Shown piece by piece: positions 6,179 to 25,627 of a DNA stretch of 64,000 nucleotides (positions are counted from its first letter, which is position 1; the number at the start of each line of letters is the position of its first letter). The notes beneath the pieces were generated by a model. The model was not told the DNA's origin and did no database searches. It was given only the letters and a program-made list of their open reading frames with translations. A program made the position numbers and the translations under genes. This DNA is from Caulochytrium protostelioides (Eukaryota; Chytridiomycota; Caulochytriomycetes; Caulochytriales; Caulochytriaceae), in contig ML014147.1 of assembly GCA_003615045.1 (NCBI GenBank), positions 1 to 64,000 on the forward strand, written 5' to 3'.

Positions 6179-8355
6179 GCTTTGCTTGTCAATATGCTTC
6201 GGACTCACATGAACCGATTTCCTCAATCTTTGTTTTTATTCCTGCATCTGTTTCCTCTTTGGCTCCATTTCAACGCTTTCTTTCGTCGCTGTTTTTTACT
6301 GCTGGCTCGGTAATCTTGGTCTTGGTTGTTGGCACCGCGGTTCTCCACTGTCTGCGCGGTTTACTCGGCCCCCTCTCTCGCCCCCTCTCTTCTGTGAATG
6401 CCCTGCGTTCCCTCATTGAGGGATGACCTCGTTTGGCATGGACGGCCGGTCCTTTCTTGTCGTTTGGCGTTTTCCGATGGCCTCACTGGTTCCGTTCGTT
6501 CGCACCGATGCTTCGCGATATCCATACATGACCTCCTTCCGCCGAGCGGAACCCTGTCCCCTCCTCTCCCTCTCTCACATCCCCCTTTTTGCGGTCGTGG
6601 CACGGTCCCTGAAACACGCCACGTGCTCTAACCTTACCAACTGCCTGCGGCAGGAATAATCGACAACGTTCGTCGACTGCGGCATCTGACGCGATCATTA
6701 TGTGATACCGGATGCGCGATGTTGGATCTAATGACCCCTTTCTTTTGACCTGATGTTCATCTATGACCTCCTGTGCCCATGGTTTCCCATATGGTCGGCC
6801 CGGGTCGGTCGCAACGTTTGTTTTTTGACTCCGGATGTGCTCCCAACGTCCGCTGGGGGACATTGACCCACGCCGCCTGCCGCGTTGCCTCTCGAAGGTA
6901 TGAGGCTTTTCTTTGGTGCGCTACTGTTCACGCTTCGCCATCCTCTCTTCCTTCCCGCTCCGCCCTCTCCACCATCATCACCTCCTTCGCCGCGTCTTCC
7001 CGGTGAAGTCATAAAAAGGCATGAAATTTTTTTATTTAAACAAGCACCTTGTACCCTCCCCTTCCTGCTGGTTAATGAGAGACCGCTATCACGAGCCCCG
7101 TTTCATATAGTTTCATGTTATGCAGGGGGAAGGCCCTCGTCGCCAGTCCACCCGGCGACGGTTATGCTAGCGGGGGCGGGAGCGGGGCCACGGCGGGACC
7201 AGACCGGCGGAGTACCCATTTCTCCGTTCCTGGCCATCGGGTCTGCCCGGCCGACTGATGGGGTGGATCAGCAGCTAACCGCATCCGTCCGATCGCTACG
7301 ATGTCGGCTGAAGCCAATGTTTCTTCCAGACCTCGTTCAAAGCAAAGCTGCACCGGGAAAGCATCAAGCGAGCCCACGCTTTCGGGAAAAGGCCCGCGCG
7401 GCCGGGCCCATCGCGCCACCCATGCCACGTTGTCGTGCCCCAGAAACCCAGGCGAGAACCACCGCCGGCGGCCGGATCCATGGCATGGCATAGCGCGACA
7501 TCAAGAATCAAGAATCATCGATGGGTATAATCGAAAGAGACATGATGGAACCCACGTGCCTTGCTTGGCATTGCTGGCGTGGAGGCGGTTCACAGGCGGT
7601 TCACAGCAGCCATCGCAGTGGCCATTGCCATGGGTGGGTGCAGCGACTTTTTCCGCTCCGTGCGATGGAAACGTGCCACGTCGGTTGACGAAAGGGTGCT
7701 TGCTGCATTCCTGCTTTGCCGCACGGCCCCTTTGCCCGAGCCCCCGCGCCCGCCGCTGCTGCCGCCGCCCGCCCCTCTTGTCGCCTCCCGCCGCCCGCCC
7801 CCTGCCTATACCCGCACGTCGTCGCGTGTTCGGCCGTCCTGCCGCCTTTCTAGCCCAGAGACAACCCTCTTTTCGTTACACACCGAGTCCCAGGAGCCGG
7901 TGATACTCGTCCGCGACCTTGCTATCATTATCGTTATCGCTGTCGATGACGACGACACGCGTATTTGCTCATCCACGCCGCATCCGCCGCACCGCGTGTG
8001 ACCTCTCCCCCCCGCGAGCTTGATACGGGGCATCCCTCCCGCCCGTGTGGCCGACGCGTACGATACTTTGCGGTGTTTTCAGCCGCTGCTCGCGGCCTTG
8101 TGGGCCCTCCTGCATCGTGTCGTCCCGTACCTTATCGTGTCGTATCGCCCCGTACCGTGTGCTCTGCCCGTGGCGCTGATTTGCCGACGCGAGAACGAGG
8201 GCACCGTTCAACCACGTGCTCGCCTACTTCGGCTGCAGCAGCCCTTGTTAGTCCGTCGGTCTGTCCGCTCCGGGATCCCCTGTGCCATCGCTGTGCGTCC
8301 CGGTTTTCCCGGCTGGTAATCCACCCCCGCGCCGCTGCGCGTGGCTCTGCCCAGG
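6179..8355. other. 2.2-kb region upstream of RPB2, no supported gene
   Basis: Pyrimidine-rich, moderate-G+C DNA without a recognisable coding segment. It could contain further exons of the gene starting at 5684, since that gene appears to end in a splice donor, and the promoter and leader of RPB2. Long C/T-rich stretches (6200-6600 and 6930-7000) give Ser/Leu/Phe-rich spurious frames. Confidence 0.4.
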
Positions 8356-11300
8356 ATGGACCACTACGAGGATGAGCTCGATGACATTACCCAGGAGGAT
8401 TGCTGGCAGGTCATCGGCGCCTTCTTCAAGGAGAAAGGTCTAGTGCGCCAGCAGCTGGACTCGTTCGACGAGTTCATCCACAACACCATGCAGGAGATCG
8501 TCGACGAAAACAGCACGCTCCAGTTGCAGACCCTCGCCCAGTTCACCGGCCAGGACAACGATATCTCGAAGCAGTACATCATTAAGTTCGGCCAGACGTT
8601 CCTGTCGAAGCCGGCGATGACCGAGGCAGACGGTTCGATCGAGTATCTGCACCCGCACAATGCGCGTCTCCGTAACTTGACCTACTGCGCCCCGCTGTAC
8701 GTGGATATGCAGTGGGAGGTGCACCAAGCGGACATGGCGCATCCGCAGAACCAGGCCGCGACGTCCAATGCCGACATCCACTGGGACCTCATCGACCAGT
8801 CCGCTGAGCCTGAAAAGGTCTTTATCGGCCGCGTGCCCATCATGCTGCGGTCCAAGTACTGTATGCTCGAAAACGCGGACCAAGACCAGCTCACCAGCTT
8901 CAAGGAGTGCCCCTACGACTCGGGTGGCTACTTTGTGATTAACGGCTCCGAGAAGGTGCTGATTGCCCAGGAGCGCATGGCTTCGAACCAGGTCTACGTG
9001 TTCGCGAAGGCCCCGCCCGCGCCATACACGTTCAGCGCCGAGATCCGGTCCCAAGCCGAGAAGGGCTCGAACGTCGCGTCGACGCTCTTCATCAAGATGA
9101 TGCACTCGCGCAGCGGGCACCGCGCGTTCGGCGGGCAGATCATCCATACCTCGCTGCCGTACATCAAGGCCGATATCCCGATCATTATCGTGTTCCGCGC
9201 GCTGGGTATCGTCGCCGACCGCGACATCCTCGAACACATCTGCTACGACTTCAACGACCGCGATATGCTCGAGTTGCTCAAGCCATGTATCGAGGAGGCG
9301 TTTGTCATCCAGGACCGCGAGGTCGCACTCGACTTCATCGGCAAGCGTGGTGCCCCTAACGGCGTGTCGCTGGATAAGCGCATCAAGTATGCCGAGGACA
9401 TTTTGCAAAAGGAGATGCTGCCGCACGTGGGCGTCAAGAGCCACCACCAGACCCGCAAAGCGTATTTCTTTGGCTACATGATCCACCGCCTGCTGCTCGC
9501 AGCGCTCGAGCGCCGCCAGTTGGACGACCGTGACCACTTTGGCAAGAAACGTCTCGATCTGGCCGGTCCCCTGATGGCTGGCCTGTTTCGTCTGCTGTTC
9601 CGCAAGCTGACGCGCGATATTGGTCGATACCTGCAGAAGTGCGTGGATGATAATAAGGAGTTCAACGTCAACCTGGCCGTCAAGTCGTCGACGATCACCA
9701 ACGGCTTGCGCTACTCGCTCGCCACAGGCAATTGGGGTGACCAAAAGAAGTTCATGTCGGCCCGCGCCGGTGTGTCTCAGGTGCTGAACCGGTACACGTA
9801 CGCCTCCACATTGTCGCATCTGCGCCGTCTCAACACGCCCATTGGCCGTGACGGCAAGCTCGCCAAGCCGCGCCAGCTGCACAATACCCACTGGGGCTAT
9901 GTGTGCCCGGCCGAGACGCCCGAAGGTCAAGCGGTCGGTCTGGTCAAGAACCTGTCGCTGATGGCTGTCGTGACAGTCGGCTCGAACTCCATTCCGATCC
10001 GTGAGTTTTTGGACGAATGGACGATGCTCAACCTGGAGGAAGTGTCGCCGTTCGACATTGCCGAAAACACGAAGGTCTTTGTCAACGGCTCGTGGGCGGG
10101 CATCCACCGCGAACCCGACAAGCTCGTGCAGACGCTGCGCAAACTCCGACGCTGCGGTGACCTGAATCCGGAGGTGTCCGTCGTGCGTGACGTCCGCGAG
10201 GGCGAACTCCGCCTGTACACGGACGCGGGTCGTATCTGCCGCCCGCTCTTTATCGTGGATGAAGAGAACCAGATGCTGACGCTGACCAAGGCACACGTCG
10301 ATGAGATCACCGACATCGAGTTCCCCTGGCGCTATGTGCTGGAGAATGGGTTGTGCGAGTACATCGACACCGAAGAAGAAGAAACCGTCATGATCTCCAT
10401 GAGCCCCGACGATCTGGCCGACTCGCGCGCCGCGAAGCTCGGCCACCAGCAGGAGAAGGAGCGCGGCATCATGGACCGTCTCAAGTCGGGCGGCCTGTAC
10501 ACGGGCAACTGGACCCACTGCGAGATTCACCCGTCGATGATTCTCGGCGTGTGCGCTTCCATCATTCCGTTCCCGGACCATAACCAGTCCCCGCGTAACG
10601 TTTACCAGTGCTTGCATCCCGACACGCCCATCCTGATGGCCAACGGCGCCCGCAAAGCTATCCGGGACGTCGCAGTAGATGACGTCGTCGTCACCTTTGA
10701 CCCGGTCACCCTCGCCTCGGCCTACTCGCGCGTGAAGCACCAATTTGTACGTCCGACCGACAAGTCGATCCACACCGTCGTCACCGCTTCGGGCCGCCGC
10801 ATCACCGCCACGTGCGACCACAAATTCATGACCGCCGACGGCTGGACCGAGGTCCGCCACATGACGCCCGCCGCGACCCGCGTGGCGGTCTCGCTCGCCG
10901 CGCTGCCCGCCGACCCGACGGCCCCCGCACCCATGAGCAACGCGCTCAGCTTCCAGGGCGCCGCTGTCGCGGTCTCCAGGGCAAGCGTCGAGGCGCGCGT
11001 CGCAGCGCCGCACCTCCGCGCTCTCCGCGACATGGGTCTCCTGCCGCTGCTGCACAGCGCGCCGCTGCTCCCGACACTGGCCCGCCTCGTCGGCTTCATT
11101 GCCGCCGCCCGCGGACTTACGCTCGGCGATGACCGCACGCCGACGCTCGCGCTTGTGTTCAGCAACCCGGTCGATGCCGATGCCTTTGAGGCCGACATGA
11201 ACGCTGTCTGGGCGTACGCGAAGCGCCACGGCGGCGCCCATGCCGCGTCCGCTTGGCCGCGTCCGCTCGTCGTCACGCCGCATCCCGAGACGGGCACTCG

Positions 11301-13593
11301 CGACGTGCGCCTTGCCGCGCCGCTTTCGGGCCAGAGCCCGGCCGCGCCACTGCTCACGCTGCTCCTCGCGCTCGGCGCCCTGGATGCCGGCGCGATGCCA
11401 GCCTGGCTCATGTCCGCCTCGCCCCTCGTCCAGCGCGAGTACCTGGCCGGCCGTCACGGCGCCGACGTGGCCCATCTTCAGATCCTCCCCAAAATCATGC
11501 CTTCCGCGACGTCCGCATCGTCTTCGACATCTTCGTCGTCCTCAGCAGAAGACGACGAGGCGATTCCTATGCACATCAGCAGCTTTGTGCCCTCGGAACC
11601 GTTCGCGGTCGACGCGGCCGAATCGGCCATCAAGGCCCAGACCACGGCGACGGCACTTGCGGCGCTCTACCAGGCTGCTGGCGTCAACTGCTCGCCGACG
11701 CACCTCGACCTCGGCGCCACACCGCCCGTCGGTGTCGCGACGAATGCAAGTGCGTCGGTCGCGGGTCCCGCGGTGCTCGTCCACGGCGAAGCCGACAATC
11801 TCATCGCCCTCTTTGACCACATTGGATACCGCTACAACGTCCGCCGTCTCGAGCAGACGGGTCTGGCGACCGAAGTGTTGCGCTGCGAACGTCACCTGCG
11901 CGCCGAGCACGCGGCCGCGCTGTCGACAGCGCGGCATCTCTTTGCCCGTGGCCGTACCGTCGCCCACGTGGCCCACGTGACGGGCTGTCATTCGGCTGAT
12001 CTGGCGGCGCTGCAGCAGGGCCAGTCGCCCGCACCGTTCCGCGTCACGCGTGATCAGCTGGTCGCGCTCTCGTCGTCCCTGGCCGTGGCGGGCGACGGCA
12101 CGGGCAAGGTGTTTGTGCCGGTCGCGCACATCGAGCGTGCCGAGCCGTGCGAGGTCGCTGACATCACGACCGAAAATGATCACCACAGCTTTATTGCGGG
12201 CGACGGGTTTTGCGTGCACAACAGCGCGATGGGCAAACAAGCGATGGGCATCTTCCTGACGAGCTTCCAACACCGCATGGACACGATGGCCAACATTCTG
12301 TTTTACCCGCAGAAACCGCTAGCGACGACGCGGTCCATGGAATTCTTGCGGTTCCGTGAGCTACCCGCCGGCCAGAACGCTATCGTCGCCATCGGGATCT
12401 ACTCAGGCTACAACCAGGAAGATTCACTGATCATGAACCAGAGTTCCATCGATCGCGGGCTCTTCCGTTCGATGTACTACCGCGTGTACATGGACCAAGA
12501 GAAGAAGGTCGGTCTCGACACGACCGAGGTCTTTGAGCGTCCTACGCGCGACACGACCCTGCGCATGAAGCACGGGACCTACGAGAAGCTCGACAACGAC
12601 GGCCTTGTGGCGCCTGGCGTCCGCATCACGGGCGAGGACGTCATTATCGGCAAAACGGTTCCGATCCCGGAGAATTCCGATGAGCTGGGCCAGCGTACGG
12701 AACAGCACACGAAGCGCGATGCCTCGACGCCCCTCAAGTCGACCGAAACGGGTATCGTCGACGACGTGATGGTGACGACGAACGAGGCCGGCTTCAAGTT
12801 CGTCAAGGTCCGCGTCCGCTCGGTGCGTATCCCCGAGATGGGCGACAAGTTTGCCTCGCGTCACGGTCAGAAGGGTACTGTGGGTATGACTTACCGCACC
12901 GAGGACATGCCCTTCACGGCCGAAGGCATTACGCCCGATTTGATCGTGAACCCGCACGCCATTCCGTCGCGTATGACGATCGGCCACTTGGTCGAATGCC
13001 TGCTCGGCAAGGTGTCGGCCTTTTCGGGCGACGAAGGCGACGCGACGCCGTTCACGGACCTGACTGTCGAGAACATCTCCCAGGCCCTCTTCCAGTATGG
13101 CTTCCAGCAGCGCGGCTTCGAAGTGCTGTACAACGGCCATACCGGTAAGAAGATGACGGCGCAGCTGTTCACGGGCCCCACCTACTACCAACGCCTGAAG
13201 CACATGGTGAACGACAAGATCCACTCGCGTGCGCGTGGCCCCGTCCAGATTTTGACGCGCCAGCCCGTGGAGGGTCGCTCGCGCGACGGTGGCCTGCGGT
13301 TCGGTGAGATGGAACGTGACTGTATGATCTCCCACGGTGTGGCGCAGTTCCTGCAGGAGCGTCTCTTCACGACCTCCGACGCGTACCGCGTGCATGTGTG
13401 CGACATGTGCGGCTTGATGGCCATCGCCAACCTGAAGCGCAACGATTTCGAGTGCCGCGTGTGCCGCAACAAGACACAGATCTCCCAGGTGCATTTGCCG
13501 TATGCGTGCAAGCTTCTTTTCCAAGAGCTCATGGCCATGAACTTGTCGCCACGTATCATGGTGGGTGAGATCCCGCTAGCTGAACAACGCTAG
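8356..13593 (+). CDS. RPB2: RNA polymerase II second-largest subunit Rpb2, with in-frame intein
   Basis: A 1745-codon ORF. The first ATG (8356) gives [10 protein letters not shown] then [14 protein letters not shown], the conserved Rpb2 N-terminus; a frame-open GTG 15 bases upstream was not used. Hallmarks in order are [122 protein letters not shown] and YNGHTGKKM. The C-terminal zinc site is CDMCG...CRVCRNKTQ. Removing the intein (10609..12222) leaves 1207 residues, matching yeast and human Rpb2 (about 1170-1225). It forms the protrusion, lobe, hybrid-binding and wall domains of Pol II in the nucleus. The intein splits the conserved sequence between ...PRNVYQ and SAMGKQAMG, so splicing is needed for a functional polymerase. 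No intron is seen. Confidence 0.99.
10609..12222 (+). mobile_element. Intein inserted in Rpb2 (class 1, 538 aa), homing-endonuclease core degenerate
   Basis: It starts with Cys1 ([10 protein letters not shown], block A) directly after the extein residues NVYQ. Block B is [14 protein letters not shown] with the TxxH motif. It ends with a block F-like stretch ([15 protein letters not shown]) and block G GDGFCVHN, with penultimate His, terminal Asn and Ser as the +1 extein residue. All residues needed for protein splicing are therefore present. The central region has two remnants of a LAGLIDADG endonuclease: [10 protein letters not shown] (about 11089-11118) and [10 protein letters not shown] (about 11440-11469). 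In both, the expected first acidic residue is replaced (Ala and Gly). A Ser-rich linker of low complexity lies at about 11500-11550. It is read as an intact splicing domain with a probably inactive endonuclease. Inteins in RPB2 are known from chytrids and some algae (general knowledge). Confidence 0.95.
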
Positions 13594-22069: not shown

Positions 22070-22990
22070 GTGGTGCTAGCCAACCGCCGGTCGCGGCTCT
22101 CTCGCGTTCCAGCCCGGGCTCGATAGCGAGACAGCAATCCCGCGAATCTCCGATGGCGGCCTGTCCCTGAGATGACAGCGGAAGCGGGGCAATGTGTTGA
22201 TCGTCAAACAGCGTCAAACAAAAGAGGACTGTGGATACCAGGGGAGGTCGTGGCCGTGCCAAAGACCGCAGACGAGGACCGGCGTGCTGAGCTCGCGAGT
22301 GACGCGAGACGGTCGGCGGTCGGGTGACCGGAGGTTCCGCGAGGGAAGCCTGCGCCTGGAGGTCGGCCTCCGCGGCATCTTGGGTCGCCGTGGATTCGGC
22401 GGGGGCGCGCGCGCGCGCGACAACCCGCGCCTTCGCTTCCGCCACGACCGGATTGGCGGCGTGGGCGGCGATCGCGGCGGCCAGCCGGGCCAGCCCATTG
22501 AACTTCCGATGCGGCGGCGCGCAGCAGCGTCGGATGCGAGGCCGCGGGCCGCGCACCTCTCCTTCCGGCCCATCGCCATGGCATCCCCCCCCCACGATCT
22601 CCGACCGGCCCGCAGGCCGCCATCTGGCACGACGCTCGCGCCGATCCGGAACAGGCACCGCCAGAAACCCCCGCGCGGGTCGGGGTGGGGCACCCAGACG
22701 CCGTGCTGATATCGACGACGCCCTCCTCGCGGACCGACGGCATGCTCAACCCCGGCCGCGGCCGCGCGTGCCGAGCCTCCCCGGGGGGTTCGAGCGCGTC
22801 CGTGCGGACCCGTGGCTGCTGGACATGAACGGACTCGACGGTGCGGGGTGTGGTGCTCTTCCACTGTTCGGTGGGCCCTGGCGACCCGTGATCCCCGCAT
22901 CGGCATCCTCAGCTGCATCGGTAGCGACAGCCGCATTCACGGCATCCCGAGCCCACCCTCCCCGCGATTTCCGGACAGCACATTGGCGTG

Positions 22991-25627
22991 ATGCTGCACC
23001 TGGCGCTGCACCCGCACAACGCGGCCATCGTCGGCGTGTTCCTCCATCCGGCGGCCTCCACGACGCATGCGGCGCCGCCCGCACTGGCCCACGGCAACGG
23101 CAATGGTTCATGCTCGAGCCTCGCATCGGCGGCGGCCGCGGCATCCCTGGCGTCGGTGCCGGTCACGCGGGTGATCCGGATCAAGTCGCTGTCGAAGACG
23201 ACACCCGTGGCCGCGGCGGCACAGGACATCGTGGCGCGGTGTCGGTGGATACCTGCCTCCCAGCAGGACGAAGTACGGTCGCTGCTGGCGATTCTGCAGT
23301 CGAAAGCGGTCGCGGCCGAGGCGGAGTATGCGCTGCTGCAGCAGCAGCGGCAGGCTTTCCGGATGGCTGCGGCGGCCGGCGACGACGTCGTGACCGAGGC
23401 CGACCGTTCCGCGCTGCTCACGCCCGCGCTGGTCGAGCAGTGCATCGAGAAGCTCTATGAAGAGACCCCCGACAAGGTCGCCGCGAGCCGCCGGCTCTTC
23501 CGGCTCGCGCAGAACGTCATGAACGTCGAAATCTTGATCCAGAACGAAGGGCTCGTCTCGGCGCTGATCCGCGTGCTCCGCGAAGACTCCCGCAAATCGC
23601 TGGAGCTTGCGACGGCGATCGCGCTCGTGTTCGATGTGTTTGCCGAGCATGCGGCGCTGCACGCGACGCTGACACAGAGCAAGATCGGCGATCTGTGCTT
23701 CAAGCTCATCGACCAGGAGCTCGGCCGCCACGACGTGTGGAAGGACGACGTGGCGCGCGCGGCGCAGCTCGCCGAGAGCGGCGAGGGCAGCGCCGGACGG
23801 CAGCGAGCCTATGAGCAGGAGCTTCGCAAGTTTGAGGGCATGCTCAAAAAGCAGGAGACGTTCCTCGGGATTTTGTTGCACCTGCTGATGAATCTCGCGG
23901 CCAGCCCCGCGATCGAGGTCAAGATGGTGAAGCGCGACATCATTCCCTATCTGCTGCACCTGGCGACGCGCAAGACCCCGGCACTCGTCATGATGTGTGT
24001 CCTGTTTCTCAAGAAGCTCAGCATTTTTGTCGAGGCCAAGGACGTAATGGTGGCCCGCGCGCCCGAGCTCCTCGGGATGATCCAGCGCATCATGGACCTT
24101 GCCCCGGAGGGTGCCGGCCGCCACGCCGTCTGGGGGCTGCTGGCCAATCTGTGCCTCGACCCCGTCTTTCTCACGGCCTTCAGCGAATCAAAATGGGTCA
24201 CGAGTCCAGGGTTCCAGCAGCATACGTCCGCGCAGCTCGGCACCGTCGTAACACTCTCCGTGTCGACATCATCAGCAATCACGACAGCAGCCGTAGCCAC
24301 TGTTGCGACGCCAGCATCGCCAGGCCCCGCCGCTCCCGCGGCCTCGACAGCAAACGAGGCAAGTACGCCAGCGGATGCCGCGGAGCAGCTGGCGTCGCAC
24401 CCGGCGCTGCTCGTGCTGTACCGCATGTCGACGCATCCGAAAGCATGCCAACACCCGGTGTTCAAGGAACTTGTGGCGCCGCTCGCGCGCGCCGTGTGGA
24501 CCTCCGAGTCGCCGAGCCTCTTTTCGCTCGCGCTGCTGGTGAACCTCGCCAGCGATCTGCGCCACCGCGACGCCATCGTGGCGGAAGTTCCGCTCAAGGC
24601 ATGGATGAAGAAGGCCACGACCCTGAAGGACGCGGATATGTTCAAGATGGTCCGCCAGCTGCTGAGCGCGGCGCCCCGCCCGCTGGCGGCGCCGCACGAC
24701 GGGAGCGATCCTGCCGCGCGCGCGGCTTTCTATGGCGCGTCCGCGGCCTCGGCCGGCGATTCGACGGCGCTTCATATGAAGCTGCTAGAGCACGTGGACA
24801 AGCTCGTGCGCGTGATCCTCAAGCCCGTCTCGGCTCGGGTCCTCAGCGAGGTGTTGTCGCTGTTCAACCAGCTCACCTTGCCTGACTTCGACTACCTGCG
24901 GCTGCTCAAGATGTACCCGCTGCTGGACGTGCTGGGGCAGGTCATTGCGGCTAGCCCCGAGGGCCTCGATCCCGACGACGATCTCGTCCTGAACGCGGTG
25001 ATCTTTCTGGGCATGGTGGCCGGCGACGCGGGCGTCGCGGCCCTGTTTGCCGCGAGCCCGGTGCCGACCGAGCTCGTGGCGTTGATGCTACGCAAGGAAG
25101 GCGACGACGAAATCATCCTCCAGATCCTCTACTGCCTCTACCGGCTCGCGTGCTTCGCGCCGAGCCGCGCGATGCTGCTTGCTGAAACCGAGCTGCCCAT
25201 GTACCTCATGGACCTCCTTTTTGACCGGTGCGCGCCCATCCGGGCGATCTGCGGCACGACGCTCGACATCATTGCGGAACACGACGAGGCATGGGCCGCC
25301 CGCATCCGCCAGCAGGTGTTCTCCTTGCACAACGCCGACTGGCTGCAGACCACGCTTGCGCAGGGCGGCGGCGGCAGCACCTCGTCCGCGATGACCGAGG
25401 CTGGGGCGGAACCGATCACAGCGGTCACTCCGCGGCCGACCACGTCGCATCATCCGCCGGCCGCGCCACGGCAGCGCCGCACGGGCGCCTTTGAGCGCCG
25501 CGCGCGACCCAAGTCCCGGATCAAGGGGTGGCGGGGCGACGGCGCGTCCAGCCGCGCGACCGCGTCTTCGGTGGGCAACGTCGCCCGGGGCGGCCTCGCC
25601 CATGTGAATTTCGTCGACGAGCTCTGA
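22991..25627 (+). CDS. KAP3: Kinesin-associated protein 3 (KAP3, kinesin-2 accessory subunit)
   Basis: 878 aa, one exon. The N-terminus (LALHPHNAAIVGVFLHP) aligns with the HPTEKALIVHYEVEA-type start of KAP3; a short upstream exon may be missing. Further KAP signatures are VIRIKSLS, EKLYEETPDKVAASRRLF, LVSALIRVLREDSRKSLELA, KIGDLCFKLIDQELGRHDVW, LKKQETFLGILLHLLMNLA and VLFLKKLSIFVE, then armadillo repeats to FDRCAPIRAICGTTLDIIAE and EAWAARIRQQVFSLHN. An Ala/Thr-rich spacer (about residues 420-470) interrupts the repeats. KAP3 links the heterodimeric kinesin-2 motor to cargo and supports anterograde intraflagellar transport. Its presence implies a cilium or flagellum. It converges with TBC1D7. 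Confidence 0.95.
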   Translation: MLHLALHPHNAAIVGVFLHPAASTTHAAPPALAHGNGNGSCSSLASAAAAASLASVPVTRVIRIKSLSKTTPVAAAAQDIVARCRWIPASQQDEVRSLLAILQSKAVAAEAEYALLQQQRQAFRMAAAAGDDVVTEADRSALLTPALVEQCIEKLYEETPDKVAASRRLFRLAQNVMNVEILIQNEGLVSALIRVLREDSRKSLELATAIALVFDVFAEHAALHATLTQSKIGDLCFKLIDQELGRHDVWKDDVARAAQLAESGEGSAGRQRAYEQELRKFEGMLKKQETFLGILLHLLMNLAASPAIEVKMVKRDIIPYLLHLATRKTPALVMMCVLFLKKLSIFVEAKDVMVARAPELLGMIQRIMDLAPEGAGRHAVWGLLANLCLDPVFLTAFSESKWVTSPGFQQHTSAQLGTVVTLSVSTSSAITTAAVATVATPASPGPAAPAASTANEASTPADAAEQLASHPALLVLYRMSTHPKACQHPVFKELVAPLARAVWTSESPSLFSLALLVNLASDLRHRDAIVAEVPLKAWMKKATTLKDADMFKMVRQLLSAAPRPLAAPHDGSDPAARAAFYGASAASAGDSTALHMKLLEHVDKLVRVILKPVSARVLSEVLSLFNQLTLPDFDYLRLLKMYPLLDVLGQVIAASPEGLDPDDDLVLNAVIFLGMVAGDAGVAALFAASPVPTELVALMLRKEGDDEIILQILYCLYRLACFAPSRAMLLAETELPMYLMDLLFDRCAPIRAICGTTLDIIAEHDEAWAARIRQQVFSLHNADWLQTTLAQGGGGSTSSAMTEAGAEPITAVTPRPTTSHHPPAAPRQRRTGAFERRARPKSRIKGWRGDGASSRATASSVGNVARGGLAHVNFVDEL

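What the first reader, a model, noticed from the sequence alone, without database searches (positions are those of the whole stretch)
10609..12222. Intein in RNA polymerase II subunit Rpb2
A 538-residue intein with Cys1, block B TxxH, block F-like motif, penultimate His, terminal Asn and +1 Ser sits exactly between extein residues ...NVYQ and SAMGKQAMG of a conserved Rpb2 segment. Nuclear-encoded inteins are rare, and this one makes Pol II assembly depend on protein splicing. Removing it leaves a normal 1207-aa Rpb2.
Basis: partly seen in the sequence, partly recalled or inferred. Interest (0 to 1): 0.85.

Follow-up and report, generated by a model that had tools for sequence, protein, structure and literature searches.

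The report
Intein inside fungal RNA polymerase II
A self-removing protein segment (an intein) sits inside a core subunit of RNA polymerase II in what looks like a fungus, and the same genome carries at least twelve more of these normally rare elements, mostly in other essential proteins, including a nearly identical pair in two different RNA polymerases.

Summary

The larger surprise is the genome: at least 13 inteins in 10 genes (RPB2; RPB1 twice; RPC1; Trp-, Ile- and Thr-tRNA synthetase; VMA1; PRP8 three times; eIF5B; a glycosyltransferase). The RPC1 and RPB1 copies are 92% identical in DNA at paralogous sites, a recent jump between polymerases. In what I read of the literature the largest count for a nuclear genome was three; supplementary tables were not seen. 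No splicing was measured.

The parts
8356..10608 (+). RPB2 N-extein, 751 residues (Met to ...PRNVYQ)
   Evidence: Pfam Rpb2 domains 1-5; residues 9-751 aligned to 3h0g_B 10-759
10609..12222 (+). Intein, 538 residues, Cys1 to His537-Asn538
   Evidence: TIGR01445 and TIGR01443 over cut-off; precise insert; HINT fold of the model
10609..10647 (+). Intein block A ([13 protein letters not shown])
   Evidence: C1 and G13 invariant in 5 of 5 rows (two rows are identical)
10786..10845 (+). Intein block B with T68-C-D-H71 (TxxH)
   Evidence: T68, D70, H71 invariant in 5 of 5 rows
10894..12078 (+). Central region with homing-endonuclease-like fold, including a Ser-rich stretch
   Evidence: Foldseek's first rows are endonuclease-bearing inteins, TliVMA and PI-PfuI among them; residues 289-334 and 368-385 under pLDDT 50
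11077..11115 (+). Block C-like LAGLIDADG helix, [13 protein letters not shown]; the acid seen in allelic rows (TDG) is missing
   Evidence: by eye
11434..11469 (+). Block E-like LAGLIDADG helix, [12 protein letters not shown]; Asp kept, following Gly lost (GGDG in allelic rows)
   Evidence: by eye
12154..12198 (+). Intein block F (around [15 protein letters not shown])
   Evidence: D518 invariant in 5 of 5 rows; TIGR01443 match begins at residue 518
12199..12222 (+). Intein block G (GDGFCVHN)
12223..13593 (+). RPB2 C-extein (+1 Ser, SAMGKQAMG...) and stop
   Evidence: Pfam Rpb2_6 and Rpb2_7; residues 1290-1735 aligned to 3h0g_B 760-1205

Best explanation
A class 1 (Cys1 ... His-Asn | Ser+1) LAGLIDADG-type intein is translated as part of the Rpb2 precursor. 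Inferred steps: Cys1 attacks the Gln-Cys bond, the N-extein moves to Ser+1, Asn538 cyclises and releases the intein, and the exteins close to an ordinary 1207-residue Rpb2. The insert lies just before the conserved SAMGKQ segment, in the hybrid-binding region of Rpb2 (placement recalled), so unspliced precursor should not form active Pol II. The endonuclease that once drove homing looks dead, so the intein is probably kept because only an exact deletion would leave a working RPB2. It belongs to the RPB2 'YQ|S' allele group shared with viral contigs and with unnamed, divergent RPB2s, which suggests old exchange between viruses and fungi (direction not known). Shown here: sequence, insertion point, motifs, predicted fold, kinship. 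Not shown: splicing itself.
Against: Pfam Intein_splicing stays under its cut-off. The C-terminal model is only 1.5 bits over its cut-off. The central part of the structure model is poor. The place of the window intein inside its allele group is unresolved (nearest row P0008, 99/78; 149 columns, long branches, odd letter make-up flagged). P0001-P0015 bear no organism names; 'virus-like' rests on the IMG/VR loci and on divergent exteins (23-64% identity by segment), and the extein tree does not settle it.
Confidence: 0.96

Rival explanations
1. The insert is a long spliceosomal intron that happens to be open and is removed from the RNA.
For: A GT-AG pair (10608-12224) keeps the frame; a stretch this long is sometimes open by chance in this composition, 9 of 4000 Markov sequences.
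Against: That splice would give NVYHAMGKQ instead of the conserved YQSAMGKQ; the other frame-keeping pair scanned (10595-12241) removes eleven residues. The insert matches intein models at both ends, its model folds as HINT, and divergent RPB2s have inteins at the same codon boundary.
Confidence: 0.02
2. A once active intein that no longer splices; the insert stays in Rpb2 or the gene is dead.
For: The endonuclease region has decayed and a Ser-rich stretch is present.
Against: All splicing residues are intact, the exteins are open and align over nearly their full length, and no other RPB2 was found in the assembly.
Confidence: 0.02
3. On origin only (compatible with the best explanation): the RPB2, RPB1/RPC1 and synthetase inteins descend vertically from ancient eukaryotic inteins, and viruses acquired theirs from hosts.
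For: The own RPB2 intein is far from every fetched relative (best splicing-domain identity 54%), so no recent exchange with the fetched set is visible; Green et al. 2018 hold old nuclear inteins possible (PMC5784728, passages).
Against: RPC1 and RPB1b inteins are 91.8% identical in DNA while their exteins differ, so at least one move is recent; RPA2 and RPC2 are empty at the paralogous site.
Confidence: 0.3

Closest known systems
RPB2 and RPB2-like inteins of Salmacisia buchloeana (Tilletiales), PMC10849329 (passages read)
   Same: Nuclear fungal RPB2; reported to lie typically 6 residues from primer bRPB2-7R and 1 residue from bRPB2-7.1R, which fits YQ|S (primer sequences recalled, not from a call); Cys first, Asn last
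   Different: 397 and 423 residues against 538; a smut fungus; its letters were not available here, so no sequence comparison
Inteins at the YQ site of unnamed divergent RPB2s (P0001-P0010, P0012-P0015) and of IMG/VR contigs (L024, L027/L033, L031)
   Same: Same codon boundary, same blocks, one tree group at 96/96
   Different: +1 residue Cys in 34 of 44 database rows and 4 of 4 IMG/VR loci; some keep both LAGLIDADG acids by eye, some lack the endonuclease (142 residues in P0008); best two are 26 and 30% identical over about 550 columns, P0008 60% over the first 85 residues
RPB2-a, -b and -c inteins of Chlamydomonas, Coelomomyces/Spiromyces and Batrachochytrium (PMC1635734; parts 1-4 of 8, legends and tables read)
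   Same: Nuclear RPB2 inteins near the active centre
   Different: By its text at other alleles, in the anchor, hybrid-binding and fork domains; that none of them is the YQ|S site is inferred, as its Figure 1 is not held. The Phaeosphaeria RPA2-a intein (hybrid-binding domain, Cys+1) may be at the paralogous site (inference)
Ssp DnaB mini-intein (1mi8)
   Different: No endonuclease; bacterial host protein

Membership tests
Class 1 intein | In-frame insert at an exact point of a conserved protein, absent from homologues | tested here: met
   3h0g_B lacks it in the printed alignment, and the table's other eukaryotic Rpb2 rows end their first stretch at residue 751 or 752; own RPA2 and RPC2 read through YQC without it
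Class 1 intein | Cys1, block B TxxH, penultimate His, terminal Asn, +1 Cys/Ser/Thr | tested here: met
Class 1 intein | HINT fold of the splicing domain | tested here: met
Class 1 intein | Protein splicing of the precursor | not testable with these tools
   needs expression or mass spectrometry
RPB2 YQ|S intein allele group | Same insertion codon boundary | tested here: met
   14 of 15 in P0001-P0015; 44 of 254 fetched proteins; 4 of 21 IMG/VR loci
RPB2 YQ|S intein allele group | Closer kin to same-site inteins than to others | tested here: met
   96/96 group of 49 rows; few columns (149), long branches
LAGLIDADG homing endonuclease, active | Acidic residue in both LAGLIDADG helices | tested here: not met
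   first helix [13 protein letters not shown] has no acid; second keeps Asp (by eye); no Pfam LAGLIDADG row for this intein
Spliceosomal intron | GT-AG borders whose removal restores the conserved protein | tested here: not met
   (donors 10590-10629, acceptors 12205-12244, frame-keeping pairs only)

The most novel reading that the evidence does not exclude
This organism is an intein refuge in which inteins still move: copies jump between paralogous polymerase subunits (RPB1 to or from RPC1, recently) and to unrelated sites (one family in Trp-RS, Ile-RS and a glycosyltransferase; another in Thr-RS, RPB1 and PRP8), fed by exchange with DNA viruses whose RNA polymerases carry the same alleles. 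As a result Pol II, Pol III, the spliceosome, translation initiation, three tRNA synthetases and the V-ATPase would all depend on protein splicing, so anything that slows splicing (redox, metals) could throttle gene expression at several levels at once.
Probability: 0.35. Interest if true: 0.85.

Novelty: new member of a known kind. Interest (0 to 1): 0.66.

Why it matters
By itself the RPB2 intein adds one member to a known allele group. With the rest of the genome it becomes a test case for an open question: how do inteins reach new sites? Goodwin et al. (PMC1635734) call ectopic moves very rare; Green et al. (PMC5784728, passages) cite the GLT/CHS pair for intragenomic transfer and see no overlap between inteins of viruses and their hosts. 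Here one genome shows a pair at 92% DNA identity in RPB1 and RPC1 and three further multi-site intein groups, and the RPB2, RPB1 and RPC1 sites are also occupied in divergent polymerase genes, of which some (RPB2) are on IMG/VR contigs. It is also a warning for phylogenies built on RPB1 and RPB2.

Tried and rejected
Phage records for the intein protein: no match. IMG/VR search with the intein alone: 5 pattern stretches, none confirmed. IMG/VR pattern for the RPB1 TAVK|S site: 0, so the viral nature of those RPB1 relatives is not shown; of source labels, P0034 and (in the RPB2 set) P0219 read 'viral metagenome', while P0021 and P0145 are labelled as parts of Synechococcus and Gammaproteobacteria assemblies, and the rest have no name or only a protein name. 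The extein tree does not settle which P rows are viral: 9 of 28 inner branches starred, root arbitrary. Rfam and tRNA scans of the window: nothing. I recalled that Caulochytrium protostelioides has a small GC-rich genome and suspected it; the passages of PMC6784888 that I saw gave neither size nor GC, so the species stays unproven. A first blastp of exteins returned nothing for 4 of 7 proteins and was repeated against a database, where all 15 matched. My first count of Ser...Asp ends at the RPB1 site (109 of 120) used a pattern that fixes these ends and is no evidence for them; one search repeats it without fixing them. The glycosyltransferase intein's empty site was not tested against a homologue. 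Intein counts are lower bounds: the TIGR01445 and PF14890 scans missed VMA1, PRP8, eIF5B and the glycosyltransferase, which came from the RPB2 intein, PF14528, PF01079, a VMA1-intein query and a PRP8 family query; the last three queries added no new place; no scan was made with the RPC1 intein or for other usual hosts such as GLT1 or CHS.
Full report
What is there. The + strand frame 8341-13593 is open. From Met 8356 it encodes 1745 residues with all seven Pfam Rpb2 domains. Residues 752-1289 are extra: S. pombe Rpb2 aligns up to YQ759 and resumes at SAMGKQ, chain 760. The 538 extra residues match the NCBI intein N-terminal model (35.5 bits, cut-off 24.5) and C-terminal model (17.1, cut-off 15.6); the best whole-family hit is the intein-bearing RtcB family, E 3.2e-22, best stretch 1-290, far below that family's own cut-off. 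Pfam's intein models match only below cut-off. A sequence search of solved structures finds DnaB inteins at E 7e-4.

Chance and intron tests. The insert has no stop in frame and 8 and 9 in the other two frames of that strand; 9 of 4000 Markov sequences of like composition were open, so openness alone is moderate evidence. Cutting at 10609/12222 restores the conserved junction NVYQSAMGKQ; the two frame-keeping GT-AG pairs found among donors 10590-10629 and acceptors 12205-12244 give NVYHAMGKQ or a loss of eleven residues.

Relatives. A search with the intein region of the precursor found 15 proteins at E <= 0.001 among 7986 scored candidates; all 15 carry Rpb2 Pfam domains, and in 14 the intein lies at the same YQ| boundary (the fifteenth, P0011, has its insert at HNQ|SPRN, read). 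Over all 254 proteins fetched in three searches, two of them with capped lists (120 of 310 and 120 of 162), 44 have an intein at this site. In IMG/VR a pattern scan that demanded Cys after YQ and a scan with an RPB2 alignment gave 21 loci from 20 contigs: 4 have an intein at the site (L027 and L033 identical), 16 are empty, 1 has no site motif. A splicing-domain tree of 88 rows (all 48 same-site rows, 15 of 110 RPB2 GEMERD-site rows and 12 of 109 RPB1-site rows drawn at random, 13 own) puts the window intein in one group with all same-site rows, 96/96; inside it many forks are open, and the program warns of few columns and long branches. Exteins of P0001-P0015 are 23-64% identical to the window's by segment, so these are not near fungal relatives.

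The rest of the genome. G000 has 20.9 Mb in 337 contigs. A search with the RPB2 N-extein found RPB2 once and the paralogues RPC2 (C7) and RPA2 (C36); both paralogues read YQC-MGKQ without an insert there (by eye). Scans with intein families, own inteins and a PRP8 family found, besides RPB2, twelve more inserts with intein ends, all open: Trp-RS (C206, 491 aa), Ile-RS (C4, 537), Thr-RS (C181, 450), RPC1 (C245, 419), RPB1 twice (C162, 445 and 416), a glycosyltransferase-like giant frame (C4, 484), VMA1 (C105, 437), PRP8 three times (C42, 163, 428 and 401) and eIF5B (C81, 393). Solved homologues show exact empty sites for Trp-RS, Ile-RS, Thr-RS, RPC1 and both RPB1 inserts, for PRP8 (from the table of matched stretches) and for eIF5B. 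VMA1 aligns from end to end with 9cop_A, a V-ATPase catalytic subunit of 1071 residues that includes its intein, and residues of the insert match PI-SceI. The glycosyltransferase site was not checked against a homologue; its frame has Glycos_transf_1 over cut-off and Hint and Intein_splicing matches below cut-off.

Families and movement. By their strongest blastp links and in the tree the 13 fall into five sets: RPB2; Trp-RS/Ile-RS/glycosyltransferase; Thr-RS/RPB1a/PRP8y/PRP8z; RPC1/RPB1b; VMA1/eIF5B/PRP8x (weak links cross sets, such as RPB2 to the glycosyltransferase at E 2.5e-7, and the tree warns of long branches). RPC1 and RPB1b inteins are 91.8% identical over 1239 aligned bases, while the extein bases beside them fall from 80-90% (30 bases) to 60-72% (120 bases): a recent move between the largest subunits of Pol III and Pol II, at the paralogous site, with no clear co-conversion tract. 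These two begin with Ser and end with Asp before Thr. Of the 120 listed proteins from the RPC1-intein search, 112 have an insert at that site by a pattern that does not fix the ends; all 112 end in Asp and 104 begin with Ser, the other 8 probably because the pattern mistook the start. The Trp-RS, Ile-RS and glycosyltransferase inteins are nearest to inteins at the GEMERD|C site of divergent RPB2s and group with them at 96/85, yet sit in three unrelated genes: ectopic spread or independent arrivals; Ile-RS and glycosyltransferase pair at 99/88, the rest is undecided. By eye, both LAGLIDADG acids remain in Trp-RS, Thr-RS, VMA1 and RPB1a (sequences).

What is known. Goodwin et al. 2006 (PMC1635734; parts 1-4 of 8, legends and tables) described RPB2 sites a, b, c, RPA2-a and RPC2-a. 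Green et al. 2018 (PMC5784728; parts 1-2 of 8 and passages) count 257 inteins in 231 eukaryotic species, list VMA1 inteins for Dikarya subphyla and Thr-RS inteins for Saccharomycotina in Table 1, and name Fusarium fujikuroi with three inteins. Salmacisia has three, two of them RPB2 inteins whose stated position fits this site (PMC10849329, passages). Green et al. 2019 (PMC6805012, passages) know seven PRP8 sites. Searches for inteins together with Trp-RS (3 papers; titles and abstract starts point elsewhere), with Ile-RS and fungal (0) and for intein with Caulochytrium (0) gave nothing on such inteins in this library; supplementary tables and subscription papers were not seen, so absence from print is not shown.

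Organism.

Verdict. The finding is a real, very probably functional RPB2 intein of a known allele group; the surprise lies in the genome around it.

Noticed in passing
L016:4118-5374 (C245, RPC1) and L017:4358-5605 (C162, RPB1): Two inteins 91.8% identical in DNA at paralogous sites of Pol III and Pol II largest subunits, with Ser1 and a terminal Asp before Thr.
   Followed up: yes
L053 (C42:102358-106212): PRP8 with three inteins (WEKA|SGFEES, GDYD|SHDIER, GNLT|TKAING), the first a 163-residue mini-intein.
   Followed up: partly
L045:3937-5247 (C105): VMA1 intein at the yeast site; third-position GC 0.686 against 0.862 in its exteins, perhaps a later arrival.
   Followed up: partly
L018:6530-7981 (C4:67029-68480): Intein in a 3531-residue open frame with glycosyltransferase domains; host and empty site not examined further.
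   Followed up: partly
window 8440-11475 (-): A 1011-codon antisense open frame lies across RPB2 and the intein, probably a mirror effect of high GC in third positions.
   Followed up: no
window 22988-25624 (+): Kinesin-associated protein (KAP, Pfam E 5.6e-104), which fits a flagellated organism.
   Followed up: no
P0004, P0006, P0007, P0009, P0012, P0143 and other fetched RPB2 proteins: Some divergent RPB2s carry two or more inteins in one protein, at sites such as HNQ|S, YQ|S and GEMERD|C.
   Followed up: partly
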